A program made the translations under genes and the position numbers. A stretch of DNA of 64,000 nucleotides. It comes from Molanna angustata. Its lineage: Eukaryota; Arthropoda; Insecta; Trichoptera; Molannidae. Under the pieces are notes generated by a model that ran no database searches, was not told where the DNA came from, and saw only the letters and a program-made list of their open reading frames with translations. This document shows positions 1 to 63,060 of the stretch, piece after piece (within the stretch, counting starts at the first letter, position 1; each line of letters starts with the position of its first letter). The stretch covers positions 35,626,556 to 35,690,555 of the forward strand of contig OY754972.1 in the NCBI GenBank assembly GCA_963576475.1. Direction: 5' to 3'.

Positions 1-110
1 ATATGGCTATAAACTAACCACTTAAGTTGCTTTTCTGGGCTGGAAATGTTGGTTAGTTAGAAGAAATTTCCATATGGCAATAAACTAACCACTTAAGAAA
101 TATTTCATTT
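1..110 (+). repeat. 3' tail of a SINE/LINE-type repeat, partly duplicated
   Basis: Two copies of a ~25-base stretch (1-26 and 72-97, ATATGGC[T/A]ATAAACTAACC) lie 71 bases apart. The stretch between them (GGTTAGTTAGAAGAAATT...) matches the 3' part of the tRNA-headed SINE at 46395-46570 and the reverse-oriented SINE at 46140-46325. This is probably the tail of that SINE family entering from the left edge. The head, if any, lies outside the window. Confidence 0.4.
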
Positions 111-433
111 AAAAACGAAATAACCAATAGACTATAGTGAAATGTGTCACGAATTTGATGACACGTCAATTTTCCAGAATAAATATACATAATACATAGG
201 TACCTATTTATTTTCGAGAAATTAAATTATTTGTTCGAAATTTTGGATCCTTCCAACTGTAGTAAGAGTTGCACAATGCAAACATTGAACCAATTAAATG
301 TTTAAAATTGTTAAAAAAATTTCGCAGTTTTGTTTGTACATAATTTACCTATTTGAATGTTTGGTTTTAAAAATATTATTATGATAAACTAAGTTTAGTT
401 TGTCGATCGACAATTCTTGATAGAGCTCCATTG

Positions 434-604
434 TACGTTGATATGTTATAAAAATATAAAAATACTTGGTAATATATAACCACTAGTCTCAGTCTTGTAG
501 AGCATTATTCTGACGATGTGCTTTGCACGAAACGCGTCAATAATCTAATAAATACAATAGAACTTTTACCAAGTATTTTATATTTTTATAACATATCAAC
601 GTTA
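434..604 (+). ncRNA. hammerhead ribozyme at the apex of a long inverted repeat (Penelope-like/retrozyme remnant)
   Basis: The core CTGACGA (510-516) is followed by stem II GTGC-TTT-GCAC (518-528, with one unpaired T at 517), then GAAAC (529-533), a minimal stem III and the cleavage triplet GTC (536-538). Stem I is formed by ATTATT (504-509) with AATAAT (539-544), perfectly paired. So every conserved part of a type I hammerhead is present in order. Cleavage would fall after C538. The ribozyme sits inside an outer inverted repeat of about 36 bases (435-470 with 568-603, one indel). Hammerheads with minimal stem III are known in the terminal repeats of Penelope-like elements and in retrozymes. 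No Penelope RT/GIY-YIG coding sequence is seen nearby, so the host element is inferred. Confidence 0.72.
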
Positions 605-1500
605 TTATGATTAATTTAACAAACCCAAAATTAAATAAAATTAATATTTTTGTTTGATCAATTAACATTTTCGTCATTTACCGCATTGACCCACCATCAC
701 ACTTTATTCCAACAGAATATTGAGTTTATTTTCGTTCGTACATAAATGTTCAGTACCTATATAGATAATTTTGTATATGCCTTCGTTTTTAAATATTTAG
801 GTATGTAAATTCTTACATATGTACATCATTCCGAAAAATCTTATATTCACATAACTGATCCCCATCATAATATATTATACAAATCCAATTGTCTTTCTTC
901 AAAGAACGGATTTCAGAAACAAAAGCAATAACAATAACATATAGTAAAATAATCGAGAATTTAATATGTATTTCATATTCCGTGCTGATTTCGCATGTCA
1001 TTTATTTACTTGACGAGACCTTATTTGAATTTCTTGTGTTTTTATATTATTATCATCATTCATTACGTATTTTTATTTCCACCATTGAAAGGGATTTAAA
1101 TCATGGAACTTCTTTGACTACACCAAATATGTTTACAAAGGAAAAGGGGAAAAAATTGAATACATTTTCCAGGAAAACTCGTCCTTTAGTGATAATTCCA
1201 TGGAGTATTTTCAACGTTTACTGTTTTTCTTTACGTAAAAATTTGTATAATTTGTTTATTGAAGTTCTTAAGAGAAAACGAAAAGCACTTGATAAATAAA
1301 GGCTTTAAATAAAAATGTGTTCACATCTTCTCAGAGTGCAAAAAAGGAAAATAAAAAGGTAAGTATGTAGGTACAATAGGTGTTTTAAAAAAAAAAAATT
1401 CCTTAATAGTCATTATAAAAAAATACTTATATTGTTTAAAATATTTATTAAAATAAAACACATATTCAAAAAACACATCTTCAAGATACAAGAAAAGATA
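605..1500. other. AT-rich stretch without a recognised feature
   Basis: Open frames here are short or lack a convincing start. The longest, 889-1299 on the plus strand (136 codons), begins with a TTG, is very rich in I/L/F/Y/K as expected for translated AT-rich DNA, and shows no domain. I do not call a gene. No tandem or inverted repeats of note. Confidence 0.5.
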
Positions 1501-1504
1501 CAAA

Positions 1505-2075
1505 AAAAAACGAATGGGTTGTGGCGAACGCTATACTCCTTACTACCAGTCACTCCATAAAGTATTCAAATTTTGTATGGAATTTTTTTTTAAGAAATAA
1601 GTTTGTTCAATATTTTTTTTATTTAAATATTTTATTGTGAAAAATTGTTATTTCTTCAATGTCATTTTATGAAAGTGATGTACATTTTTACCAATTTGAA
1701 AATAAAAATTTCAAATTTTATGTCTCCCGAGCTTGGGTAACATTGAAATATTTGGCAGTTAAAAAATTGAGAAGGACTATTCAGATTTCCTTCAAAATTT
1801 TATGGGGAAACATAAGACATACAAATTTGCAAAATTTGAAAAGAATCGAATGAGTGCTTTAGTCTATAATTGACAAAAAAATAAATAAACACGCCGTACA
1901 TAGCAAAAGGCACAAAGCAGTACACAGCAAGACTTTGTGATGAAACTTTCAGAATACAATCTCAGCATGATACTTGTTGATTATCTGCAATAAAATAACA
2001 ACCTTAAAAATTGCGATTTAATAACTCCCCACTATATCCCCATGGGTTAGTGAGGAGTAAAAACATATTGCCCTT
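1505..2075 (+). repeat. interspersed family V, copy 1
   Basis: This stretch is the reverse complement in outline of 48770-49305. Shared landmarks are the GGGTTGTGGC block near 1516, the CGAATGAGT block near 1850, the ATACAATCTCAGCATGATAC block (1954-1973) and the CCCCATGGG...GTGAGGAGT block (2038-2058). A more diverged plus-strand relative occupies about 6060-6400. No coding capacity is seen, so it is a non-autonomous element of unknown class. Confidence 0.55.
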
Positions 2076-2079
2076 TAGA

Positions 2080-2900
2080 ATGCAAACATTCGTGTGTAAA
2101 GGAGCACAGATCTATCCCAGACGAAACAAATTAAACAATAATTAATTATTGTGTATATTGATAGTACATCAGATATACATTTGTCTAAAGTTATATACTT
2201 GTCGATTCCTCTGTGGTTTAATAATCTATGTACATATGAGTTGTTCAACTCCGAAGCATTTTGGAAAAGAGCCAAGTACATATTGAGATGTTTGTTCTTT
2301 TTATATTTTAGAGTTTTCATAAGGATAATACAGCATACAAGATATTATAATTTTATTCATGAAAATATTCAACTTACAGTACAGAATCATCTGAATACGT
2401 ACAAATGGTCCCTAGTTAATTATACCTACGATATATTTTAAAATACTTTTCAAAATGTTGTTATATAGGAAGAATTACTTTTACGTACATATGAAATCTC
2501 CACCATAATATTTTAGAAAGTTATATGTATGTTTATATGTATATTTATATGTATGTATGTATGTGATTATTTTTTTATAGTTATCTTTTCAATCAACAAT
2601 AAGAAAACTTTAAAGGTTAAGGTTATTTTGCGTATCGCTTCCTTTGCGACCAGTGAGTAACTTAGGAAAATTAAAGATATACTCTTTAATGTTTTATCTT
2701 ATTTTCAATTTCGTCACGAATGAAACGACAAAATATTTATGTACTTTTTCGTAAGCTAATATTTGTTTATTTGAATGTCAAAAGTACGTTTTTAGACGAA
2801 TGACATATATTTTCAAGTACAACTTAGCATTTGAATGAAAAACATTGTGACTATTTCATTTAGTTTTGATGTTTTTCGTATTTATAAAAAGTCAATTTTA
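2080..2900. other. AT-rich stretch without a recognised feature
   Basis: Overlapping open frames on both strands (2075-2320 minus, 2151-2441 plus) are short, compositionally biased and unrecognised. A brief (TATG)n tract lies near 2524-2562. Nothing else supported. Confidence 0.5.
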
Positions 2901-2904
2901 TGCA

Positions 2905-3118
2905 ACGAAATGGAACTTAATGAAACAGAACGCAACGAAACGGAACGCACCGAAACGGAACAAAATAAAATGGAACGAAACAAAATGAAATTGAACGCAA
3001 TGAAACGTAACGCAATGAAACGTAACGCATTGAAACGAAACGAAACAAATGGAACTGACTTTCGTATTTTAATTTTTATTTATTTGGTTGGATGTGTTTT
3101 TCTCAGTCTGAATTTATA
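2905..3118 (+). repeat. degenerate GAAACGGAACG minisatellite inside a family-T copy
   Basis: About 150 bases (2905-3055) consist of degenerate 5/10-base units around GAAAC and GGAAC, which makes an artificial frame full of NETER/NAMKR repeats. It is directly followed by TTTTTATTTATTTGG...TCTGAATTTATAGTC. That resembles the sequence before the right end of the family-T elements at 11759-12698 and 18283-18470. I read it as internal satellite expansion within a family-T copy. Confidence 0.5.
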
Positions 3119-3419
3119 GTCATTCCTAAGGAGCGCCGGTTATAAAAAAAAATATTAATGAAGTTAGAGAAATTGCATAAATTCTCGTATATATTCGATC
3201 TTCTGACGTATTCTGCTGGTTATCGTTTCCATGGTTACACATAGAATATAATATTCAAATAAACCAATCTAATGATAGAGGAATTTGTTTTGAATCAAAT
3301 TCGAATATTATTTTTTTTAAATTCCATACTTATTACAAATATCTGACTTTGTTGATAATTCATATTATTTTTTTTTTCCATTAATTACAATTAAATACTC
3401 ATACAAATATTTTAGTGTG

Positions 3420-3868
3420 TAATATATTTGAAATTTTAGTGTGTAATATATCGCTTAGAAGAATTTGTAACAGAACGATGTATGATAGAGTTCGGAATGA
3501 AGATACAAGGAAAGAATGTAAGATAAAGAAAGATGTAATTAACAGAATGAAAGTTAACACATTGAGATGGTTTGGCCACTTGGGGAGAATGAACGAAGAA
3601 CGCCTGACGAAGAAAATATACAAATCTGACAGGAACGGAATAAGAGGTCGCGGGCGCCCAAGAAAAGGATGGCACGACCATGTAAACGATATTTTGAAAG
3701 ATGGAAATGTAAGAAGCGTGAACAACAGACGAACATGTATAAGACGATGTATGAATGTTAAGGAGGCGATGAATGCGTGTCAAGATAGAAAAATGTGGCG
3801 TTCGGTTCTCTCTGCCTACCCCGTGAGGGACATGGCGTGATGGTATGTATGTATGTATGTATGTATAT
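3420..3868 (+). pseudogene. 3' fragment of an RTE-like LINE (ORF2 C-terminus) with TATG tail
   Basis: The frame ending at 3840 carries the C-terminal tail of a non-LTR retrotransposon polymerase: RTMYDRVRNED, LRWFGHLGRM, GRGRPRKGWHDHV and DRKMWRSVL. It is almost identical in sense to the minus-strand copy at 55600-56166, which extends further 5' (AVVVPTLTYASETW). The stop is followed by a short (TATG)n tract (3842-3868), as in LINEs that end in microsatellites. The RT and endonuclease domains are absent, so this is a 5'-truncated, dead copy. The apparent 5' part of the frame (3415-3460, a repeated GTGTGTAATATAT motif) is probably not LINE. Confidence 0.8.
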
Positions 3869-5519: not shown

Positions 5520-5706
5520 CTTTTTTTTTTTATAATAAAAATGAATATGTCCTTGTTAAACAAGTACATATACATCTTCGTACGTTCCCTAAAATAAGCA
5601 AATAAATGCTTGTGCTATAGGTGAACGAAATCGGTCGAGGCAGGATTCGAACTCGCGACCACTGGATTACTAGCCCAGCGCGCTAGCCGCTCTGCCATCG
5701 ACCCAT
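5520..5706 (-). mobile_element. tRNA-derived SINE
   Basis: Read on the minus strand, 5706 to 5632 is a tRNA-like head with an A box (TGGCAGAGCGGCTAG) and a B box (GAGTTCGAATCCT at about 5643-5655). It is followed by a body (ACAAGCATTTA, ATGTATATGTACTTG, GGACATATTCAT) and an A-rich tail (poly-T on plus at 5520-5531). The same body occurs without a head at 16795-16905 and about 10395-10500. The acceptor stem does not pair, so this is not a working tRNA gene. Confidence 0.75.
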
Positions 5707-6059: not shown

Positions 6060-6440
6060 AAATTTGACAGATGAAATCTTAGAGAAGAAATTAACGGATA
6101 TCTATGGAAAACTAATCAGCTCTAGGTCTATGAATTACATATATGGTGTAAATATGAAGTCAATCGGACTTATAGTTTGGGCTGTAGAGAGGGCTCAAAA
6201 AAATAATTCCATACGTCGAACGCCGCCATACGCCGTGCGCCATATGCCGTACGCCGTACACACAAAGACATCACGACGAAACTCACAGTGTTCACTCTCT
6301 ACATGATACCCGTTGAGAAATTGATGTAAAAAAATTCGCCTAAAAATTGTGAAATCATGACTCTCCACTATTTCATAGTGTGGAGAGTGAAAAAAAAATA
6401 CAAATTCACTGAAATCTACCCATATAAAATATTCCATTAA
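6060..6440 (+). repeat. family V, diverged copy 2, with short tandem CCGTACGCC motif
   Basis: Blocks resemble family V copy 1: CACGACGAAACTCACAGTG, the CATGATACCCGTTGAGAAATT region, and GTGGAGAGTGAAAA. An insertion of tandem GCCGTACGC/CATACGCCG units lies at 6220-6255. No coding function supported. Confidence 0.4.
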
Positions 6441-6841
6441 AGTTCTCATTTCGTTCTTTCACAAGAGGTGTCGTCTAGTGGATTTCATTAAGCACACACC
6501 CAGAGGACATCCAAAGGACCTTCATCAAACTGTGACGGCAATATTATTTATGCCCTGGGCACATCGGGGTCACATTGTTCTCTCCGTACAAAGGCATACT
6601 TGGACATATTTCTCTCACTCATGCAGAGTTCGGAATCAGTACTTGCTTTGCTGGGAACATTCTTATGTTAACATCAATTTTATTTCAAACAGCACATCCT
6701 TAGCATGCTTATAATATACAAACTTGATTAAAAACATGCTACTTAATGGATGTTTGTGATCGCAGCCTACCCCAGAAAAAACGTGGATTGATATATATAC
6801 ATTTTATGTAGGAATCTAAAGTAATAAAGCAATCAAAATGT

Positions 6842-12698: not shown

Positions 12699-12935
12699 TT
12701 AACATATATATTAATATATAAATAAATATATATTACACACTTAAATATTATGGTGGAGATATAGCCCAAAAATAAATCGAATTTTTTTCAAATTGACATT
12801 TTTTATAAAAAGGGTCCACTAAATTTTTCGAGTTCATATCTACAACTTTCTCTTTTTGACATATCTATGCGCAATTCTGTTCATGGTATCAAATTCACTT
12901 TCCCGAAAATATCTTTCGATGACGTGCAATCTTTT

Positions 12936-13422
<487 letters not shown>

Positions 13423-13429
13423 TTAGAAA

Positions 13430-14570
13430 AGTATTGCGGTTTAATAAAAACACATAAAAAATAAATTGTAAAGCTCCAAAGCAATTTTATTTTTTCCTTG
13501 TGTTATCGGAGCGAAACTGTTTTATCATTTTGGAAAAATATGCTTCAAGGCTTAATAAATTTGTAGATATACCAAAAAAAATATCAAATACATTTTACAA
13601 TAATCGTACGAGAAATATAGGAATATTCCGAGCAAAAGTATTTTTTCAAATAATTGAATTTAACTCTAGGTACATAAAAAAACAGGAAAATAGTATCTTT
13701 AAACGCTGAAAAATACAGTTATTTTGCTGAAGATAAGTATTTATCAGAAAAAAAAACAAATGAACTAATGTATAACTGAACTATCTGAAAATATTTGGGT
13801 ACTCAATATTATTCTCCTAACTTATCGAGTCTTTTTTTATGTATTCACATTGTATGTTTACAGCAATCAATTTCGACGTCTCGCTGTGTGCTTTAGGTAC
13901 ATAAGTCTGTGTGCTTTAGGTACATTTTTATATTCTAAAATACATCAATACGATATACAATAAAAGGCGGCGATTTTTTACGAACACGACGGATGTTTTA
14001 TAAAATCGTACGGATACTTTTATTTTCTGAAAAGAAAATTGACAATATTGTCTAAGCTAACGAATTATTTATGTATGTGTTATATTTGATAAAAAACATT
14101 ATTTTTTTTTGTTATATATTTTTTTTATATAACTTCTCGGGAAACTTACGTGTACTATGTCAAATAAATTTATTATATATTTACATTTACACAATTGCAT
14201 GCACAGCACAAAATTATTTTGTTAGATTTAACATTTTGCGTCTATTAACAATACCTGTACCAAGTCAACAAAATATACTTAGAATTAAATACATACATAT
14301 AGGTAATACAGATATATTTAAGTATTAATTACATATTGACAGTTAACATAATACAGTGATAAGTAAATTTCAGTACAAGATAAATTTCAATTATTAAATG
14401 ATCTTGATATTAAAAAACTAGTGAGTGTAACTTAATATTTAAATTTTTGAGAATTTTATTGCTAAATATAACCTAAATTCAAGGCTAGGTTACTATTTAA
14501 TGTTTACAGTAAGCTGGTACAAGCAAAAATGCTCCATTAATTAAAATAGGAACAAAAAATTCTGTATTAT
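13430..14570. other. AT-rich stretch without a recognised feature
   Basis: Small frames (13500-13709, 14071-14328) are AT-composition products without domains. A duplicated GTGTGCTTTAGGTACAT lies at 13889-13925. Nothing else supported. Confidence 0.5.
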
Positions 14571-21722: not shown

Positions 21723-22969
21723 TTAGGTCCTTACATATGAAATTGGCGTTTTGCCATACTGGCAACTTTGATCTCAAATATCTTCTCTTTGGTTAGGAAT
21801 TCGAAATTCAAATTTATACAGCTATTTACTCATATATTTGTGTTTTGAAAATTATAATTCATTTGTTTTTTCCTCAATTTTTTTTTACCTTTACGTCACT
21901 CAGTTTGTAAAATGGAAAACTTGAAATATCGCGTTATTTACGAATATGAGTTCCACCGTGGCACCAGTGCTGCAGAAATGGCTCTATGGATTAATGATGT
22001 GTATGGCGACGGTGCCGCAAAAGAAAACAGAGTGCGTTTTTGGTTCCAACGTTTTCGTTCTGGAAATTTCGACCTGCAGAACATGCCCCGTGGTCGGCCG
22101 GAGACCAAAGTTGATAATGAAGAATTGAAGGCTATTGTGGAAGCGGATCCATCGCAAACCACGTCCGAGTTAGCTGCAGGCTGCGGTGTTAGTATAAAAC
22201 TGTTTTAATCCACTTGAAGCAAATTGGGAAGGTGAAAAAGCTTGGAAAAATCAACAAACGCGCGTTGACTGCTGCGTTGCATTACTCAACCGGCACAAAA
22301 ATGTAGGGATTTTAAATCAAATCATTACCTGTGATGAAAAGTGGATCCTGTACGATAAATGGAAGCGCTCATCGCAATGGCTGAACCCTGCCGAACCAGC
22401 CAAACCATGCCCCAAGCGAAAATTGACTCCAAAAAAGTTACTTGTGAGCGTTTGGTGGACTAGTGCTGGTGTCGTTCTTAAATCTGGCCAGACGATTACG
22501 GCAGATGTCTATTGTCAGCAACTGCAAACCATGATGGAAAAGCTAACTGCTAAACAACTGAGGCTGGTTAATCGCTCTAGGCCACTGCTGCTTCATGATA
22601 ACGCTAAAACACACACTGCACAACAGACGGCTACCAAATTAGAGGAGTTTCAATTGGAATGTCTAAGACATCCACCGTACTCTCCGGACCTTGCCCCAAC
22701 AGATTACCATTTTTTACGAAATTTGGATAACTTCTTGCAAGGGAAAAAATTCAACTCCGATGGGGCAGTCCAAACCGCCTTCAAAGATTTTATTGATTCC
22801 CGTCCGAATGGTTTTTTTTAGTAAAGAGATCGATGAAATACCTATGAGATGGCAAAAGTGCATAGGTAGCAATGGTACATAGTTTGATTAAATAAATATA
22901 TTATATTTAAAAAAAATCGACTTTATGTTCCTCCCATACAAAACGCCAATTTCATATGTAAGGACCTAA
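21723..22969 (+). mobile_element. mariner transposon, cecropia-like, with perfect 30-bp inverted ends
   Basis: Left end TTAGGTCCTTACATATGAAA (21723 on) and its exact reverse complement at 22940-22969 give 30-bp terminal inverted repeats without mismatch, flanked by TA on both sides (21721-21722 and 22970-22971). Length 1247 bp, close to a full mariner. The perfect ends and readable transposase point to a fairly recent insertion. The coding region is disabled (see next entry). The cecropia-type assignment comes from the terminal sequence and protein style and is established knowledge of the family, not a search result. Confidence 0.93.
21912..22880 (+). pseudogene. mariner transposase, inactivated
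   Basis: The N-terminal 98 codons (MENLKYRVIYEYEFHRG..., a paired-like DNA-binding region with GRPETKVDNEE) end at TAA 22206 because one base is missing at about 22194. The following coding sequence continues in another frame, then lacks the linker containing the conserved WVPHEL-type motif (deletion near 22245). The catalytic core is readable: ITCDEKW, LLHDNAKTHTA and SPDLAPTDYHF give the D,D34D triad (34 residues between second and third Asp). A short in-frame deletion lies near AGVVLKSG, and an extra T in the run at 22811-22818 shifts the last ~20 codons (PMRWQKCI). At least three independent lesions make it non-functional. Confidence 0.9.
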
Positions 22970-25387: not shown

Positions 25388-27490
25388 ATTTATTTATTTA
25401 ACTTTTTGTACATGATATAAACAAATTAAATGCACACTGGCGGGCTTATTGCCATTAGGCAATTTCTTCCAACCAACCATATTGAGAGATTCTGGTTCAG
25501 AATCGTCCTTTCCAGTACTTCATATAGCCCTTAGGATTTGGGCCTAGGTTGCGGCTCTAAGGGCCTAGGCAGTAAAGGCGGGGGTGGGCGGCCGACGCTG
25601 TTGTGCCCTCGTCAATTCTGTACTTAGAGAAGAGCAGGACGGACGCCTCTAGTCTCGCTCGGCAGTTACTCGTCAAACTGTGGCGAATGTTGTTGTGTGG
25701 TTCGGGCACACCGCTGGCGCAGACGTCGGGTCAGACATCCTGTGTTGACAACTAGACGTCAAATCTGACAGGTGATGATTGCGTCGGATGCCCCCGGTGT
25801 TAGCCCGCGGAACCTTCGGACGCCAACACGAGGACCGAGGGGTGCGGGGGCAAGCCCTTCCGTTCGGTCAGTTGTGCTAGGGGCTTGCCCCGGCTGCCGA
25901 TCTTGAGCGGTTGCCCCGCCGTTTGAGGTTGGATTCTCGGGGGCAGTGGTTAAATCCGATGGATGGTGGATATTTTGTGTTTGTCCGATGTTGCGGCTGC
26001 GTCCGGTGGTGAACAGGGCCAATGGGCTCTATAGCGTCGCCGGCGTGGAAGTGGATCGCGATCTCCCTAGCCCTTAGGATCTGTTGGCTCTTTTCCTGGA
26101 TTTAGAACAGCAGTTACCTTCGCCTTCTTTAGTTAGAGAGTATCATTTTCAGAACGCATCAGTTCATTAAGTTGCATAGCCAGTGTTTTGAGCCAAACAT
26201 CTTTTTGTGTTCTACCCCCAGCTCATCTTATTCTGCCGCTTTATTATTTTTATGGTATTAACTGGCGGTGTTTACTTTAAATAGGTTTAAAAAATCTCCA
26301 AGGAAAGTATTTTCATAGTCAGGCATCGAGGCGTTCCACTTCGCCATTGCTTCTTTAGTCTTACCGTTTGATGAGTTGGTGGACTACTTAGTTTGGGGTG
26401 ACAGTGATGTGATGTTGAGGTGGTAGGGTTATTGCTTAAGATTTTCAGTATCTTCGAGCTCTTTTACTGTTCTGTTTCATATCCAAATTTTCATCTAATT
26501 AACCCCACTTCTCCCTTCTGCCCGTTTCAACCGCGCATTCAACAGTTGTTCACCAATTTGTAAAGTTTCCTCCGAAAAGGGATCGGTCCCATAGAGGTGT
26601 TCATATTTAGATAAGAGTTAATCGCCGTCTTCTGTCAAACCTGGAATATAATAAATTGGTACGGCATCCTCTCAGAATTTTCTTCCTTGATACAGTCTAC
26701 ATACTATTTCAATAAAATCTTCATATTTTTCAGGAGACGGATATATTCCCTCCACCTTTCCATCCAGTTCATCAGCAAACCCCTTCCAATTTGCCTACCT
26801 ATAATTGAATTGCCTCTAAAAAGGCACTGGGGCAGGTTTGATTATGGGTGTGATTGTGCATGACATTCTGTTGAGTTCTAGGTATAGAATTTTTCATCAA
26901 TTTGACGGTCTGGTTCACAATCTTATCACTCACAAAAACATAACCGGGTTTAAGCCTCTCCTCCATCTGGAGCTATTTAAGGATAACGGTAGTTTGGGGT
27001 CATGAATTAGGCGGAGATCATTATTTTCAGCCCATTTCTCCAGTTCGAGGCCATCGCTATTGGTCTCACTTTATCCCTATGATGTACTTACTGTGACTAT
27101 TGAAATCCCCCATTTTTATCTTGAATTTATTTGTATTAAAATTACTCGTTGGACAGAACTTATAATTTATATTGGCTGGTTTATACACAGATATTAAAAA
27201 GCAATCAGAGAGTTCCACGGAGAGGACTTCTATGTCATATATGTCGGTCACACCAACAGACACATTATCCGAACTGTCCCTTACAAAAATTGCGCTGCAT
27301 TACTTATCATGTGGTCTCTCAATCATCAATTTCATGCCCTTTACCTTTGGCTCCTTTATGTGTCTTTTGCATCAAACAACGTCGCAGTTAAGTCCAGATA
27401 AAATCTCCACATTGTCATCACTGAGGCCCTTAATGTTTATTGAGATTGTCTTCATTGAAAGTGGTGAACAGGGAATCTTTCAAATGGATC
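25388..27490 (-). mobile_element. non-LTR retrotransposon remnant with endonuclease part and 3' end
   Basis: The 3' end on minus (25524 to 25388) reads GGTTGGAAGAAATTGCC, TAATGGCAATAAGCCCGCC and ends in TAAATAAATA. The same terminus occurs on the plus strand at 57288-57382. Upstream on minus is a truncated polymerase start (VTAVLNPGKEPTDPKG near 26120-26080, the entry motif of LINE RT), a linker (27000-26400 with scattered stops), and an endonuclease piece at 27263-27066 with SVYKPANI and MGDFNSHS, the catalytic Asp-Asn motif of APE-type endonucleases. Most of the RT is deleted. A GC-rich element has inserted after the PKGY position. Confidence 0.7.
25538..26067. mobile_element. GC-rich 530-bp insertion flanked by 13-bp direct repeats
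   Basis: TAGCCCTTAGGAT stands at 25525-25537 and again, identical, at 26068-26080. Joining across them restores the host LINE sequence, so this is a clean insertion with a 13-bp duplication. The insert is strikingly GC-rich compared with everything around it. A minus-strand frame (26022-25759, 87 codons, rich in P/G/R/T) has no recognised domain. No inverted ends and no A-tail are visible; the left inside edge is GGGCCTAGG...AAGGGCCTAGG, a short duplicated motif. Long duplications without inverted ends suggest target-primed insertion. Class unknown. Confidence 0.6.
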
Positions 27491-35644: not shown

Positions 35645-36811
35645 ATGGAACCTATACCAAACGATTCGTTTAGATCAGTTAATAAATTAAAAGAAGAATT
35701 GAATGTCAGGGGTATTAAATCCGGCAACCAGTTAAAAATGTTACAGCAACAGGCGCGCGTTTGGAACCACTCAGTCACCCATTTTGAAGAATATTTGAAA
35801 CGCAAAGAGTTGGAAGGTCAGTCTATAGTCGGAGAAGCTTTAGAAAGGGGTACGGAATCCGAACAGGACGTGATAGGGTCTACTCGCTATGTCGATTTGA
35901 AAGATGCGGATGTTAGATTTTTAAATAGAGAAAAAATTAGCGACAGGGTGGCGGTACCTAAGCCTTCGAATAGGATAGAATTTGTGAAGGAGTCGAGGAT
36001 AGCTGGTTTAAGTAGCCTCAATTTACGATTTGACGGAACTTCAGACGTAATAGAATTTTTGGAGAAGTTAGATAATTTGCAGTATTCTCGTGGGATTCCC
36101 GATGAACAAATTTTGAGAGCATTTTCCGACTTACTTACGGGCCACGCCGAAGTTTGGTATCGTGCTTATAGGGAACAGTTCTTGACTTGGGATCAGCTCA
36201 AGTTGTCTTTAAAAAAACGTTTTAGTAGTGCCAGTAGAAATGACGTTTTAGAACAGAGGTTGAGAGAACGGACACAGAAGGCGGGCGAGCCCACGTCTAA
36301 TTATATTGAGTCTGTATATTTCATGTCAAATAAATTAGAAAATCCTTGGTCGGAGAGGGAAGTTTTGCGTCATATCTTTAAAAACGCCCATCCCGAATGT
36401 AAACTTATGTTGCGTTCGTGTCATGCGACCACAATATCCACTTTAATGGATAAGGTACGCACGGACGAAAATTTTCACGAGCAGGACCATATTCAGAAAA
36501 TGAATCATATAAATAAAAGTTTTTCTAAGTCTAAGTATGTTCAGTCCGATGTCGCTGCGATATCTGAGTCACGTCACATGGTATGTAAGAAGTGTAATAA
36601 AGAGGGGCATTGGGCCCGTGATTGTAAATTAATCATTAAGCCTATTTGTTTTAAATGTAAGAAGGAAGGAATTTTGACCAAGTACTGCTGTGGTACTAAA
36701 AATATTTCATCACCGGTCCCAAGTAACAATGTACAAATTGACTCTTCTAAAAATATTAATTTATCAAAAAACGGTCATCATCCCGCGGACGTAGTACCCC
36801 TTCGAAAGTAA
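35645..36811 (+). CDS. gag: Gag of the Gypsy element
   Basis: 388 codons, intact. Residues ~12-45 (VNKLKEELNVRGIKSGNQLKM) resemble a SAP-like helix pair. Residues ~125-265 form the retrotransposon gag core (FDGTSDVIEFLEKLDNLQ, AEVWYRAYREQF, LKKRFSSAS, HIFKNAHPECKLML). Two zinc knuckles follow: CKKCNKEGHWARDC at 314-327 is canonical CX2CX4HX4C, while the second, CFKCKKEGILTKYC from 335, has Ile at the His position and should not bind zinc normally. The protein would form the virus-like particle and bind RNA. It overlaps pol by about 60 bases in the -1 frame. Confidence 0.92.
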   Translation: MEPIPNDSFRSVNKLKEELNVRGIKSGNQLKMLQQQARVWNHSVTHFEEYLKRKELEGQSIVGEALERGTESEQDVIGSTRYVDLKDADVRFLNREKISDRVAVPKPSNRIEFVKESRIAGLSSLNLRFDGTSDVIEFLEKLDNLQYSRGIPDEQILRAFSDLLTGHAEVWYRAYREQFLTWDQLKLSLKKRFSSASRNDVLEQRLRERTQKAGEPTSNYIESVYFMSNKLENPWSEREVLRHIFKNAHPECKLMLRSCHATTISTLMDKVRTDENFHEQDHIQKMNHINKSFSKSKYVQSDVAAISESRHMVCKKCNKEGHWARDCKLIIKPICFKCKKEGILTKYCCGTKNISSPVPSNNVQIDSSKNINLSKNGHHPADVVPLRK

Positions 36812-38724
36812 ATTATTCGGACCCCGCGGCATTGGCAGAACATCTGAAATTTGTAAGATGGTTTTTGTCGTCCACTAAGATTGCGCCCGTTATTTGCGCC
36901 AGGAACAAAGACATCCGCCCCTATTTGACGTTTTTAATAAAAAATTTAAGGTTCGAAGGTTTGTTAGATTCAGGCGCGTCTGTATCGTGCATAAATTCTG
37001 ATTTGTTTAATACACTGTTTCCTTTCAATGTAGGTTGTGAAAAGGTGAAAACTGCCGTGTACACCGCGGACAGGAGTTCACAACCCGTGGAAAGTATAAT
37101 TTATTTGCCCGTCACCGTGGAGGGGGGAGAAAAGATCGTTAAATTTTTCATTGTACCGAATCTTAGTCCTAATATTATTTTGGGAATTGATTTTTTATTA
37201 ATGTTTGAACTATGCCCTCAATTATTAAAGAATGTTAGAGTATCTACTAATGAGGAACGGATTAATTGTATTTCTGCCCTGTCCCCGGCTCAATCACTAT
37301 CAGAAAGTGAAAAATGGGAATTATATAATTTAGTTAGAGAATTTGAAGAGATTTCATTTGAAAGGAAAGGGTTGGGACGTCTTAATTTAACCAAACATAA
37401 AATAGTTACATCCGGAGAACCAATAAAACAACGATACTATCCATTATCGCCTGTGAAATTGTCTCATTTAGAAAAGGAATTGGACGATATGTTAGCGTTA
37501 GATGTGGTAGAGCCTTCAAAGTCTTCGTGGTCAAACCCAGTGATAATGGTGCCTAAAGCAGATGGGACGAGTCGGTTTTGTTTAGATTCAAGGAAGCTCA
37601 ACTCAGTCACTGTGAGAGACTCTTATCCCCTTCCTCACATACAGAGTATCTTGCAAAATTTGAACGGGGCAAGGTATATCTCAGCGTTAGACCTAAGTAG
37701 AGCCTATTGGCAGATCAATCTGGAAGAGGCTTCTCGTGAGAAGACTGCTTTTGTGGTCCCCGGGAGAGGACTATTCCAATTTAAAGTTATGCCTTTTGGT
37801 TTGAAAAATTCGGCTGCAGAAATGCAGAGAGCCGTCGATAAACTGTTTGGTCCCGAATTCGACAAGTCAGTGTTCACCTATGTCGACGATTTGATAGTCT
37901 TATCAAAAGACTTTCCATCACATATTTCAACTTTAAGATTAGTATTGAATAGGTTAAAAGAGGCTAATCTTACTATCAATCTGAAAAAATGCGAATTTTG
38001 CAAAAGCGAACTGAAATATTTAGGATATATTGTAGATGCGGAAGGGTTACGAACCAACCCCCAGAAGGTTGAAGTTATTAATAATTTTCCGAGGCCGAAA
38101 TGCGTGAAAGACGTTAGAAGTTTCATGGGAATCTGTTCATATTATCGTAAATTTATTAAAAACTTTGCGGATTTGTCTGTACCTTTAACTCGTCTCACTA
38201 GTACACGTAAGGGTGTCAGTAATTTTTTATGGTCAGAGGAGGCAGAAAAGGCATTTTTGGCTTTGAAAAAGGCACTTACTACGACCCCAGTATTGATCAA
38301 CCCTGATTTCAGTCAACCCTTTGAAATTCATTCAGACGCTAGCTCATTTGCAATAGCTGCTGTCCTAGTACAGAAAATTGATGGTGACGAACACGTAATA
38401 GCTTATTATTCTCGTACCCTTCATAAGAATGAAATTAATTTTGCCATTACAGAGAGAGAATTGTTGGCGGCTCTGGAAGCCATCCGGCATTTTAGACCTT
38501 TTGTTGAGGGGTCACATTTTAAGCTGGTGACAGATCACTCGAGCCTCAAGTGGTTGGTTACATTGAAAAACCCCACTGGTCGCTTGGCACGATGGTCAAC
38601 CGAGCTTTTACAATATTCCTTCGATGTTGAACATCAACGTGGGAAGTTAAATGTGGTACCCGATGCGTTATCAAGGATAGAAATTGCAACCTTAGATGTA
38701 GAGGTAGAAACGAAGGATGAATGA
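36751..38724 (+). CDS. pol: Pol part 1: protease, reverse transcriptase, RNase H
   Basis: The frame is open from 36751 (no ATG needed if made by frameshifting; 36832 is only a TTG). Counting from 36832: retropepsin with LLDSGAS (catalytic Asp ~46); reverse transcriptase with SRFCLDSRKLN, YISALDLSRAYWQI, MPFGLKNSAA and the YVDD catalytic box at 350-353; RNase H with HSDASS (Asp ~502), ITERELLA and LVTDHSSL, ending DALSR. All catalytic residues are present. The frame is stopped by TGA 38722-38724, yet it stays open beyond and runs directly into integrase. So this is one pol frame with a single break. Confidence 0.93.
36766..36772 (+). promoter_or_regulatory. -1 frameshift slippery heptamer A AAA AAC
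   Basis: The heptamer AAAAAAC is phased in gag as TCA AAA AAC, the exact X XXY YYZ arrangement needed for -1 slippage. The last stop in the -1 frame is TAA at 36748-36750, so the pol frame is open across the site. Ten bases downstream CCGCGG (36783-36788) can pair with CCGCGG (36824-36829) as a stem. Slippage here would give a Gag-Pol fusion. Confidence 0.75.
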
Positions 38725-39963
38725 TATAAGAAAATTTACAAAGGTGTTGTAGAGAAACCGCAGGAATTCCCCAATTATATGGTACAAAATGGTAAATTGT
38801 TTAGAAATACCAAAGTTAATTGTTCGTTGTTGCAAGAGTTTGCATGGAAGAGGGTGATACCGAAAGAGGAAAGATTAGAGATTTTAAGAAATAATCATGA
38901 TGCAGATAGTTCAGCGCACTTAGGTATTTTTAAAACATATAGAAAAATACAACTTTTATACTACTGGCCTAAACTATTTTCAGAGGTCGTAAATTATATA
39001 AATCAATGCGAAATATGCAAGAAATTTAAACACTATCAACAGAAGCCTCTTGGTATTATGTCAAATCCTAAGAGAGTGGAAAAACCGATGAAAATGTTGT
39101 CGATCGACGTGGTCGGGCCGCTACCTAGATCTAAATTAGGTAATATTTATATTCTTTCGGTTTTGGATGTTTTCTCTAAGTACCTCTGGTTATTTCCGTT
39201 AAAAAAATCTAACGCGGAAAATATCATAAAAGCTTTAGAAAACTATGTTTTTCTACCTCATGGGGTACCATCTATAATTATTGCGGATAACGGAGTTCAA
39301 TTCACCTCGAATAAATTTAAAGACCTGATAAAGAAATATGACATTCCTAAGATTTTTTATACACCTTTATATTCGCCCCAAGCCAATTCGGTAGAAAGAT
39401 ATCATCGCACAGCGATAACTGCACTCGCAGGAATCGTTTCTGATAGACAACGAGACTGGTGTAGCTTTATACCACTCATTTGCACTGCACTAAATGCCTC
39501 AGTTAATGTCACTACTAGTTATACACCTTACTTTTTATTTTTTGGAAGAGAGCAGATTTTGGCAGGAAGTCTACATGACAGATTTGGTCCTGGTCCCAGT
39601 ACGTTAGAAGAGGTTGAGATAGAAGATCGTAATGTCTATGCAGAAAAATTGTCTGATCTGAAAAAAATTTTCGACGATGTACAGGAAAATCTTTTTAAGG
39701 CTTTTCAACAGTCTGCTGCCCAATATAATCAAGGCAGAAAAGATGTATCTTATAAGGTAGGCGATTTAATCTGGCGAAAAACTTTTCCATATTCAAAAGC
39801 CAGCGAATATTTCAGCTCTAAGTTGGCCGAGCGTTTTGTCAAAAATAAAATTGTAGCGAAAATTTCTCCTTTAGTGTATACATTAGCTGACGAGAAAGGA
39901 AAAATATTGGGAAATTTCCATATTAAAGATATATTAAAACTTGAACAATCTGCCCAATCATAA
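38725..39963 (+). CDS. pol: Pol part 2: integrase
   Basis: Same reading frame as part 1, downstream of the TGA; first ATG at 38779. From that ATG: HHCC zinc domain (H40, H47, C77, C80), catalytic core D110 (LSIDVVGPL), D170 (IIADNGVQF) and E206 (QANSVERYHRT), giving DD35E. The C-terminal part (GDLIWRKTFP...FVKNKIVAKI) is a GPY/F-like module; no chromodomain is seen. It would join the cDNA to the chromosome. Separation from RT by a stop codon means it needs readthrough or trans supply. Confidence 0.92.
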   Translation, partial: YKKIYKGVVEKPQEFPNYMVQNGKLFRNTKVNCSLLQEFAWKRVIPKEERLEILRNNHDADSSAHLGIFKTYRKIQLLYYWPKLFSEVVNYINQCEICKKFKHYQQKPLGIMSNPKRVEKPMKMLSIDVVGPLPRSKLGNIYILSVLDVFSKYLWLFPLKKSNAENIIKALENYVFLPHGVPSIIIADNGVQFTSNKFKDLIKKYDIPKIFYTPLYSPQANSVERYHRTAITALAGIVSDRQRDWCSFIPLICTALNASVNVTTSYTPYFLFFGREQILAGSLHDRFGPGPSTLEEVEIEDRNVYAEKLSDLKKIFDDVQENLFKAFQQSAAQYNQGRKDVSYKVGDLIWRKTFPYSKASEYFSSKLAERFVKNKIVAKISPLVYTLADEKGKILGNFHIKDILKLEQSAQS

Positions 39964-46100: not shown

Positions 46101-46139
46101 CTTGAAAAGAATATTTCACACTTCCTTACACCCAGCGCA

Positions 46140-46325
46140 AGTGGCGAGATTATTGTACTATGGCAATTTCTTCCAACTAACCACTGTTTCCATCCTAAGA
46201 AGGAATTTGAGCTGAAGAAATGAACTTAAATAAATTTCTACTCTGCCGGGGATCGAACCCAGGACGCCCACACAGAAACCAAACGGCATACCAACTGTGT
46301 CATGGCGGTATCAAACTTGAAATAA
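46140..46325 (-). mobile_element. tRNA-derived SINE, third family
   Basis: Minus strand: A box TGACACAGTTGGTAT (about 46303-46289), B box GGGTTCGATCCCC (about 46261-46249), body ending GTTAGTTGGAAGAAATTGCC. The body matches the first 110 bases of the window and the neighbouring SINE. Anticodon and acceptor stems are not tRNA-like. Confidence 0.7.
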
Positions 46326-46394: not shown

Positions 46395-46570
46395 GAAAAT
46401 ACGGAATACTATGACATACATAGTGGTAAAGTCATTTGACTTCTGTGGCGGGGTCCTGGGTTTGATTCCCAGAAGGAAAGAAATAGATTAAAGCTCATTT
46501 CTCACACTTGTCTGGACTAGAAACATTGGCTAGTTTGAAGTAATTGTCATTTAGCAATAATAAAGTATTT
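46395..46570 (+). mobile_element. tRNA-derived SINE, same family, head-to-head with the previous one
   Basis: B box GGGTTTGATTCCC (46458-46470), A-box-like GTGGTAAAGTCATTTGAC upstream, body with ACATTGGCTAGTTTGAAG and tail AATAATAAAG. The two SINEs face away from each other with about 70 bases between. Confidence 0.6.
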
Positions 46571-61567: not shown

Positions 61568-62554
61568 ATGGCAACGGAGAACAAGGACAACACGAATACA
61601 TTTGACAGAGCTTCATATCAACAAACATCAGATGAATCAAGAAACGAAATTTTCGCAGCGAACATAAAATTACCCACAGTATGGAAGGACAAAATCTACC
61701 TATGGTTTATAACGGTGGAAGCCCAGTTCAATTCTGCAAGGATCACCAAAGACGAAACAAAATATCAACACATCTTGGGAGTACTGGACCCCGATACAAT
61801 CTCATGTGTGGCTGACGTCATCCAATACCCACCAACAAAGGATAAATACCAACATTTAAAAGAAACCTTATTAAACCGCCTTCAGGAATCTGAAGAGAAA
61901 AGACTTTCTCAACTTCTACATGGAGTACAGCTTGGTGATAGGAAGCCTTCACATTTACTTCGACACATGCAGAGCCTTGCAGGACCAACCTTAGCGAATG
62001 ATGCACTTCTTAAAAGACTTTGGATCGAAAGATTACCACATAGAGTACAGGAAATAATCTCGGCAATAATTACAAACGACATCAGCGTGCTCGCGCAAAC
62101 GGCCGATCGGATCTTGGAAGTAAACGAAAGAACAGAAATTCAGTCCATTAATTCACCATCCACATCAGCAAGTAGTCAAGCTCACCAGAGTGATTTAGTC
62201 ACTAACAGCTTACTTCACAGCATGCAGCAACAAATTCAACTATTGACAGACAAGATCGTCAGATTGGAAATTGATCATAGACAATCAAGAACACAGTCAA
62301 GACCTCAACATAATAATAATTGGAGGAATCGTTCAAGATCACGTTCTCCAAGCAGGAATCGATACCAAAACTACAATAATAATCACCAAAATAGGAATCA
62401 GAAAAATTACTATGACAACAGAAAGAGTAATAACAACAACGTGAAGCAAAACAACAATTATAGAAGAGAAGACATTTGCCATCTACACCAAAAATTCGGA
62501 ACAAAAGCATTTAACTGCATAGCACCATGTAAATTCAACGATCAGGAAAACTAA
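61568..62554 (+). CDS. gag: Gag of the CsRn1-like element
   Basis: 328 codons, intact. Core matches the lineage: IKLPTVWKDKIYLWFITVEA, QFNSARITKDETKYQHILG, the RLQESEEKRLSQLL segment and HLLRHMQSLAG. Then a Gln/Asn/Ser/Arg-rich stretch (residues ~195-300; RSRSRSPSRNR), a basic RNA-binding region. The C-terminus carries C304-x2-H307-x9-C317-x3-C321, the CHCC finger typical of CsRn1 elements in place of the usual CCHC knuckle. Start at ATG 61568 (context AATCATGG). Overlaps pol by about 20 bases, -1 frame. Confidence 0.9.
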   Translation: MATENKDNTNTFDRASYQQTSDESRNEIFAANIKLPTVWKDKIYLWFITVEAQFNSARITKDETKYQHILGVLDPDTISCVADVIQYPPTKDKYQHLKETLLNRLQESEEKRLSQLLHGVQLGDRKPSHLLRHMQSLAGPTLANDALLKRLWIERLPHRVQEIISAIITNDISVLAQTADRILEVNERTEIQSINSPSTSASSQAHQSDLVTNSLLHSMQQQIQLLTDKIVRLEIDHRQSRTQSRPQHNNNWRNRSRSRSPSRNRYQNYNNNHQNRNQKNYYDNRKSNNNNVKQNNNYRREDICHLHQKFGTKAFNCIAPCKFNDQEN

Positions 62555-63060
62555 AATTGCGGCAGGTGTGCGAGACGTCCCAGTCGCAGTTGAAACATCG
62601 TCTCTTCATTACAGAATTAGTAACAGGAATTAGATATCTCGTAGACACTGGAGCTGAAATCTCAGTAATACCTAGATATTTCAGAAATGACAAATCAATA
62701 ATTTCAACAGATAGCATCGTCACTCCACTTTATGCAGCAAATGGTACTGTAATACCTAGTTATGGGCACAAAATAATCAACCTGAATTTGGGACTACGAA
62801 GGAGTCACAAATGGAAGTTTATCATCGCAGATGTCACAAAACCCATAATAGGAGCTGATTTTTTGGAATATTACGACGTTTTAGTGGATATTAAAAGGAA
62901 AACATTGATTGACAAAGCTACAGGAATGTCAACTAGAGGGATTGTCTACAAAACCAGTATAATGAATATTGCCACGGTTCATTCCACATCAAAATTTTAC
63001 AAAATAATTGAGAAGTACCCAAATATCACTTGCGCAGATTTGAACCCAAATCGCATATAA
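62533..63060 (+). CDS. pol: Pol of the CsRn1-like element, protease section
   Basis: The frame is open from 62533, overlapping the gag end in the -1 frame, so expression by -1 slippage is likely (GGAAAACTAAA at the overlap is not a classical heptamer). The retropepsin motif YLVDTGAEISVIP has its catalytic Asp at codon 62644-62646; a second block, PIIGADFLEYYDVLVD, forms the flap/C-terminal part. It stops at TAA 63058-63060 and continues in the same frame with RT. Confidence 0.85.
   Translation: MQRSGKLKLRQVCETSQSQLKHRLFITELVTGIRYLVDTGAEISVIPRYFRNDKSIISTDSIVTPLYAANGTVIPSYGHKIINLNLGLRRSHKWKFIIADVTKPIIGADFLEYYDVLVDIKRKTLIDKATGMSTRGIVYKTSIMNIATVHSTSKFYKIIEKYPNITCADLNPNRI

What the first reader, a model, noticed from the sequence alone, without database searches (positions are those of the whole stretch)
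434..604. Complete type I hammerhead ribozyme inside a long hairpin
All conserved parts (CTGACGA, stem II, GAAAC, GTC cleavage site) and a perfect 6-bp stem I are present in order, nested in a 36-bp outer inverted repeat. Additional pairing TTGTA (495-499) with TACAA (553-557) can extend stem I. The only oddity is one unpaired T before stem II. Such minimal-stem-III hammerheads mark Penelope-like elements and retrozymes, but no such coding sequence is nearby, so this may be a stand-alone ribozyme-bearing element.
Basis: partly seen in the sequence, partly recalled or inferred. Interest (0 to 1): 0.82.

Follow-up and report, generated by a model that had tools for sequence, protein, structure and literature searches.

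The report
Ribozyme-bearing remnant of Penelope retrotransposon
The hairpin with a hammerhead ribozyme is a short, dead insertion of a Penelope-like jumping gene whose close relatives with open reading frames, carrying the same ribozyme, sit elsewhere in the same genome; it is a well-preserved example of a known kind, not a stand-alone element.

Summary
The hammerhead motif is real: core, 4-bp stem II, two-pair stem III and 6-bp stem I at 504-544, predicted cut after 538. Chance is unlikely (one looser match in 1,200 Mb simulated). Rfam Hammerhead_1 is the only match in a 49-nt search, but below its gathering score. The host genome (995 Mb) shows what it is: a 216-bp insertion (386-601) between 10-bp target-site duplications (376-385, 602-611), made of two inverted 3'-end fragments of one retroelement. 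One has 40 nt plus a 46-nt 'tail' (minus strand); the other, 130 nt, carries the ribozyme (plus strand). The 'outer hairpin' is their overlap. 17 of 20 insertions examined show 10-16-bp duplications. Close relatives lie in direct tandem, mostly 2,899 bp apart, with open frames of 857 codons; the one read in full has a reverse transcriptase and a GIY-YIG-type endonuclease, the same ribozyme 70 nt before the putative start codon, and a start encoded by the tail. So this is a Penelope-like element remnant; 'stand-alone ribozyme element' is not supported. Self-cleavage was not tested. Folding energies favour other structures for monomer and dimer alike, so activity, if any, may need a dimer or protein.

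The parts
376..385 (.). target-site duplication, left copy (TTATTATGAT)
   Evidence: 10-bp exact repeat flanking the insertion; 10-16 bp in 17 of 20 insertions examined
389..434 (-). 46-nt 'tail'; on the minus strand, after ACA, it reads ATG GAG CTC TAT CAA GAA TTG TCG ATC GAC AAA CTA AAC TTA (MELYQELSIDKLNL), matching the start of the Penelope-like frame
   Evidence: conserved next to the unit in the 21 flanks aligned; the 857-codon frame of L318 contains MEFYQELSIDKLNL
435..474 (-). 40-nt truncated element end next to the tail (pseudo-LTR positions -40 to 0); 435-472 is the left arm of the hairpin
   Evidence: mapped on the element's 3' end, 98.8% identity including the tail
473..602 (+). 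130-nt inverted fragment of the same pseudo-LTR (positions -131 to 0), without the tail, carrying the ribozyme; 2 nt (473-474) are shared with the other fragment
   Evidence: 97.7% identity; 94.7% to both pseudo-LTRs of the tandem stretch L318, 96.9-97.7% to units in L319 and L320
504..544 (+). minimal type I hammerhead motif; predicted cleavage after C538
   Evidence: 38 of 50 family units have the identical 41-mer, the window's own included
532..537 (+). self-complementary ACGCGT, able to form a 6-bp stem III between two copies (dimer)
   Evidence: sequence; dimeric hammerhead model -13.1 kcal/mol, monomer hammerhead without stem III -2.1; other folds are more stable in both cases
602..611 (.). 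target-site duplication, right copy (TTATTATGAT); its first T is also the last letter of the ACGT arm end

Best explanation
A non-coding, truncated insertion of a Penelope-like element (PLE). The parent RNA ends in a pseudo-LTR with a minimal type I hammerhead, followed by the start of the next unit's reading frame. The element's own reverse transcriptase/endonuclease cut a chromosomal site with a staggered break; reverse transcription of element RNA began at two preferred sites, one at the pseudo-LTR edge (0) and one about 46 nt further on (the tail). Here one cDNA covers 40 nt of pseudo-LTR, the other about 131 nt, and the two were joined head to head at a 2-nt match, leaving a 10-bp duplication and a long hairpin. 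Shown: anatomy, duplication, family, close coding relatives, ribozyme motif. Inferred: that each fragment was primed on a different target strand; that the ribozyme cleaves, perhaps as a dimer (ACGCGU stem III) or with the element's protein; its role in cutting tandem transcripts into units.
For: Genome search: 1,084 first-look candidates, 40 scored, 97 matching pieces. Of 20 insertions tested, 17 show 10-16-bp duplications; in the 13 of these with an inverted fragment the right copy abuts that fragment's end. Of 18 insertions mapped, all 18 have a fragment running through the tail to +45/+46, and 15 also have an inverted fragment without the tail, ending between -3 and +8 (10 of 15 within 1 nt of 0). 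L319 and L320 hold the frame's C-terminus and, 0.3-0.4 kb on, the ribozyme unit (96.9-97.7% to the window's). The tandem stretch L318 has ribozyme - 857-codon frame - ribozyme; unit 2,899 bp, 1,002 of 1,002 overlapping positions identical. Its frame holds RVT_1 (E 2.4e-13) and GIYKLNC..C..TYIGQTGRAF, and is 45% identical over 382 aa to a genomic paralogue with Pfam GIY-YIG (E 6.5e-7). Published PLE traits match: inverted pLTRs, 8-10-bp TSDs, a 31-bp tail extending over the frame's first codons, minimal type I HHRs (PMC3846280, PMC11167929, PMC7761336; passages).
Against: Pfam GIY-YIG does not hit the L318 protein itself; that domain rests on the motif (recalled as the family's hallmark) and on the paralogue. 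L318 is a sister subfamily (94.7%); the exact source copy was not identified. Rfam score is below gathering. Monomer (-11.2 vs -3.1 kcal/mol) and dimer (-22.3 vs -13.1) both prefer other folds. 3 of 20 insertions lacked a clear duplication (L282, L294, L296), and duplications had no shuffled control. The mapping reference itself stops at +46, so cannot show where the tail ends; that rests on the flank alignment. In the lizard PLE, hammerhead mutants inserted normally in vitro and no RNA ends were found at the cut site (PMC11167929), which speaks against a needed role. No cleavage or expression data here.
Confidence: 0.95

Rival explanations
1. Stand-alone ribozyme element or non-LTR retrozyme that spreads as small circular RNA.
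For: Small size, type I hammerhead, low GC, many copies without coding sequence; published retrozymes give 170-400-nt RNAs (PMC7229834, passages).
Against: The unit is the pseudo-LTR of coding PLEs, with the ribozyme beside the frame; copies are truncated at varying points from a tailed end. In the 28 stretches read around copies no tandem of whole ribozyme units without the frame was seen; L306 has a partial direct repeat and L285 two units in a 1,163-bp local duplication. PLE machinery could still mobilise such RNAs.
Confidence: 0.03
2. A MITE-like DNA transposon with terminal inverted repeats that happen to hold a hammerhead.
For: Inverted ~130-bp ends in many copies.
Against: Asymmetric ends (tail at one end), duplications of 10-16 bp, varying fragment lengths, copies without a mapped inverted fragment (3 of 18), coding PLE relatives.
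Confidence: 0.01
3. Same PLE insertion, but the inverted structure arose by self-priming/fold-back or twin priming on one cDNA rather than by priming on both target strands.
For: Self-priming on antisense templates was proposed for rotifer Penelope (PMC3846280, passage).
Against: Fold-back does not by itself explain why the tailless fragment ends within -3 to +8 of one point in 15 of 15 inverted copies; a purified PLE protein extends both target strands and starts at two adjacent sites (PMC11167929, passages).
Confidence: 0.35
4. Chance resemblance to a hammerhead.
For: Rfam score below gathering; core alone expected 0.41 times per window; competing folds are more stable.
Against: Looser descriptor occurs once in 1,200 Mb of simulated single strand; the same motif lies next to the frame's start in coding relatives, where PLE hammerheads are reported.
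Confidence: 0.02

Closest known systems
Penelope/Poseidon-type Penelope-like elements (e.g. PAc of Anolis, Penelope of Drosophila virilis, Pen_Av of Adineta vaga)
   Same: Frame with RT and GIY-YIG-type endonuclease, tandem units, pseudo-LTR, tail over the frame's start, inverted truncated copies, short duplications, minimal type I hammerhead next to the frame's start
   Different: Here the putative ATG lies 70 nt after the cut site, whereas the PAc frame starts at stem II, before the cut; this particular copy is non-coding and very short. Clade was not tested with a tree
Minimal type I hammerheads of PLEs and Terminons (Cervera & De la Pena 2014; Lunse et al. 2017: not held, seen only as references and through reviews)
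   Same: Stem III reduced to two pairs, palindromic so that a dimer can form
   Different: One unpaired T between core and stem II; known alignments have at most one or two nucleotides inserted there (PMC10085705, passage)
Animal non-LTR retrozymes (PMC7229834, passages and one section)
   Same: Type I hammerhead in small AT-rich repeats
   Different: Those lack a linked frame and occur as unit-length tandems; this belongs to a PLE with coding relatives

Membership tests
Penelope-like element | frame with reverse transcriptase | tested here: met
   RVT_1 E 2.4e-13 in the 857-codon frame of L318; the window copy itself holds none
Penelope-like element | GIY-YIG endonuclease after the RT | tested here: met
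   GIYKLNC..YIGQTGRAF motif; 45% identical paralogue with Pfam GIY-YIG; the Pfam model does not hit L318 directly
Penelope-like element | pseudo-LTRs from tandem or inverted partial copies | tested here: met
   direct tandems mostly 2,899 bp apart; inverted fragments in 15 of 18 mapped insertions
Penelope-like element | tail at one end only | tested here: met
   tailed fragment in 18 of 18 mapped insertions, no tail on the inverted fragment in 15 of 15; tail end from flank alignment
Penelope-like element | short target-site duplication | tested here: met
   10-16 bp in 17 of 20
Penelope-like element | place in the PLE reverse-transcriptase tree | not tested
   no reference PLE proteins at hand
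Hammerhead ribozyme type I | core CUGANGA ... GAAA ... UH with three stems, stem I open | tested here: met
   one extra U before stem II
Hammerhead ribozyme type I | Rfam RF00163 gathering score | tested here: not met
   17.6 of 34 bits, E 0.023 in 49 nt
Hammerhead ribozyme type I | self-cleavage | not testable with these tools
   needs RNA
Non-LTR retrozyme | unit-length tandem repeats without coding sequence | tested here: not met
   the tandem unit read (L318) contains the 857-codon frame; only the stretches fetched were examined

The most novel reading that the evidence does not exclude
The copies record a two-site start of reverse transcription in a very young PLE of an insect-like genome: an insertion typically joins a cDNA begun at about +46 (tail) to one begun at about 0, each primed on a different strand of the cut target. 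This would show in a living genome what has been seen in vitro for one lizard PLE, with up to about a thousand candidate insertions to test it on.
Probability: 0.5. Interest if true: 0.45.

Novelty: new member of a known kind. Interest (0 to 1): 0.3.

Why it matters
It explains a striking hairpin-ribozyme as ordinary retrotransposon debris and links it to closely related coding copies in the same genome. That family, with a preferred tail end and pseudo-LTR edge and many recent insertions, is a good natural data set for how PLEs start reverse transcription and what their hammerhead is for, which a review read here calls still a mystery (PMC7761336, passage).

Tried and rejected
Rejected: MITE (asymmetric ends, duplications of varying length); a 4-bp ACGT duplication at the hairpin ends (automatic, since ACGT is its own complement); stand-alone retrozyme; miRNA precursor (Rfam hits far below cut-offs); stem I extension TTGTA/TACAA (chance level).

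Led nowhere: exact-motif scans of viral contigs and genome contigs (0 matches); a loosened pattern (one search stopped at 120 stretches, at 116) gave 236 loci, of which 2 had even weak stem pairing, so I take these as chance; arm pattern, 35 loci, best local match 20 bp; stem II pattern, 0; phage search, 6 weak arm matches, and plasmid search, none; PDB comparison of the C-terminal peptide; peptide scan of viral contigs; paper search for the letters GAAACGCGT with 'hammerhead' (0). Pfam on 30 of 52 window frames found Gypsy and mariner parts but no PLE. Covariation was not tested: copies are too alike. Papers not held. Dropped before counts: L287 from the duplication table; L287, L294 (used as reference) and L295 from the mapping; L308-L317 from the unit count.

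Full report
Observation. The motif is present at the stated place: stem I 5' strand 504-509, CTGACGA 510-516, an unpaired T 517, stem II 518-521/525-528 with a UUU loop, GAAA 529-532, a two-pair stem III (A532-T537, C533-G536), C538, then stem I 3' strand 539-544. The outer arms are 435-472 and 566-602. In 150 dinucleotide shuffles of the window the descriptor does not occur. In 1,200 Mb of matched random sequence the looser form occurs once and the strict form, which the window meets, not at all. The bare core is common (0.41 per window), so the weight lies on the stems. Rfam is lukewarm: no hammerhead at gathering, none in 281 nt up to E 10, but Hammerhead_1 as the only match in 49 nt, 17.6 bits, E 0.023, gathering 34. 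Three stretches with chance cores gave no hammerhead.

Folding. As free RNA the 63-nt core region prefers another hairpin (-11.2 against -3.1 kcal/mol), and two 41-nt copies together also prefer another pairing (-22.3 against -13.1 for the dimeric hammerhead). These energies ignore core contacts. The ACGCGU stem III is self-complementary, as in hammerheads thought to work as dimers (Aedes example in PMC3088659, whose monomer showed no cleavage; passages; review PMC7761336, passages).

Genome copies. The window lies in a 994.8-Mb genome. The 171-bp query had 1,084 first-look candidates; 40 were scored, giving 97 matching pieces. Many match only the ribozyme half (query 40-169), several in inverted pairs. 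I read 20 stretches and later 8 more around copies.

Anatomy of the insertions. Next to the unit stands a conserved tail, ACTAAGTTTAG...CCATTGT; beyond it the flanks differ from copy to copy (21 flanks; the two in L285 are a local duplication). Exact duplications of 10-16 bp were found in 17 of 20 insertions, the window's included: L282 had none, L296 only an unrelated 8-mer, L294 a low-complexity match, and L287 was not tested. There was no shuffled control, but in the 13 with an inverted fragment the second copy abuts that fragment's end. Mapped on the element's 3' end (reference L294, stopping at +46; 0 is the pseudo-LTR/tail border), 18 of 18 insertions have a fragment running to +45/+46, and 15 of 18 also have an inverted fragment ending between -3 and +8, 10 of 15 within 1 nt of 0. 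Their other ends vary: -36 to -518 for the tailed fragments, -51 to -240 for the inverted ones (L299 has further pieces to -367); -131 recurs in 3 of 15, the window's among them. The window copy is -40 to +46 joined to -131 to 0. In the 8 further stretches, 7 hold a fragment reaching +46; L302 does not within the stretch, and L306 shows a direct partial tandem.

Coding relatives. L294 carries, upstream of the ribozyme unit, a 76-aa frame without a Pfam match. Searched against the genome it matched 150 places (150 scored of 4,517 candidates). By my count of that list, 21 of the 150 lie in open frames of exactly 857 codons; direct tandems are spaced 2,899 bp, a few 2,900-2,901, and others stand head to head. 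L319 and L320 hold this C-terminus followed by the ribozyme unit, at 96.9% and 97.7% identity to the window's unit. The tandem stretch L318 has the ribozyme at 634-662 and again at 3533-3561, with an open frame at 591-3161; the window's unit matches both pseudo-LTRs at 94.7% and the L294 3' end matches at 94.8% over 729 bp. So L318 is a sister subfamily; the exact source of the window copy was not identified. The tail encodes MEFYQELSIDKLNL, whose ATG is at 732 (810 codons from there to the end of the frame, 70 nt after the cut site). The frame has RVT_1 (E 2.4e-13) and near its end GIYKLNCNSCTGTYIGQTGRAFKTRIKEH. Pfam's GIY-YIG model misses it, but a genomic paralogue, 45% identical over 382 aa, passes it.

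Ribozyme in the family. Of 50 units in the loci searched, 38 have the same 41-mer as the window and 43 keep all core letters and pairs tested. An older copy (L295) has lost G12 and a stem II pair; one unit in L288 has lost G8. Because the copies are so young, this shows common descent, not selection.

Comparison with print. The passages read describe PLEs with pLTRs, inverted pLTRs, 8-10-bp duplications and a 31-bp tail extending over the frame's first codons (PMC3846280; also PMC8969392); a lizard PLE whose protein extends both target strands, starts reverse transcription at two adjacent sites that bound the tail, and has a protein-assisted hammerhead beside the frame's start (PMC11167929); and minimal type I hammerheads in PLEs, often as dispersed motifs (PMC7761336). 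The present family fits. Against a needed role of the ribozyme, the lizard study found that hammerhead mutants inserted normally in vitro and saw no RNA ends at the cut site. The one unpaired T is within known variation (PMC10085705), though an earlier screen discarded mispairs there (PMC3088659).

Verdict. A minimal PLE-type hammerhead motif inside a dead, truncated PLE insertion. The hairpin is a by-product of how two cDNA ends were joined. A new family member of a known kind; most interesting as one of many recent insertions that may record the element's start sites.

Noticed in passing
G000:C7:16617022-16631905 (minus and plus copies), C5:1787545-1794800, C12:32942345-32951918 (and L318): Direct tandems of Penelope-like units 2,899 bp apart, many with 857-codon open frames, some arrays head to head; in L318 the 1,002 overlapping positions are identical, so the family is very young
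   Followed up: partly
L295 7500-7680 (minus): An older, diverged copy of the same pseudo-LTR and tail lying inside a younger copy; its hammerhead has lost G12
   Followed up: partly
L289 1670-7276: 5.6-kb insertion with one 13-bp duplication that holds further sequence with direct repeats (about 1924-2175 and 6315-6566), perhaps a nested LTR element
   Followed up: no
L303 and L304 (C27:28624650 and C27:5725450): The same insertion (-280 to +46) with nearly identical neighbouring frames at two places on one contig, suggesting that it lies inside another repeat or a segmental duplication
   Followed up: no
window 35645-39963: Gypsy/Ty3-type element: gag with zinc knuckle, protease-RT-RNase H frame, integrase frame
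   Followed up: partly
window 21858-22821: mariner (Mos1-type) transposase in two frames: HTH_48, then Transposase_1/DDE
   Followed up: no
window 61568-63060: Two adjacent frames with DUF7041 and a retroviral-type aspartyl protease, apparently a retrotransposon gag-protease
   Followed up: no
window 1-97, with matches at 25446-25479, 46139-46195, 46507-46560: Direct 26-mer repeat in a short element with several matches in the window
   Followed up: no
window 12840-13484: Long TA-type simple repeat (reads as YIYI in the four frames listed)
   Followed up: no
window 5632-5703 (minus): tRNA-like sequence scoring just over the Rfam tRNA cut-off (32.2 vs 29 bits), possibly part of a SINE
   Followed up: no
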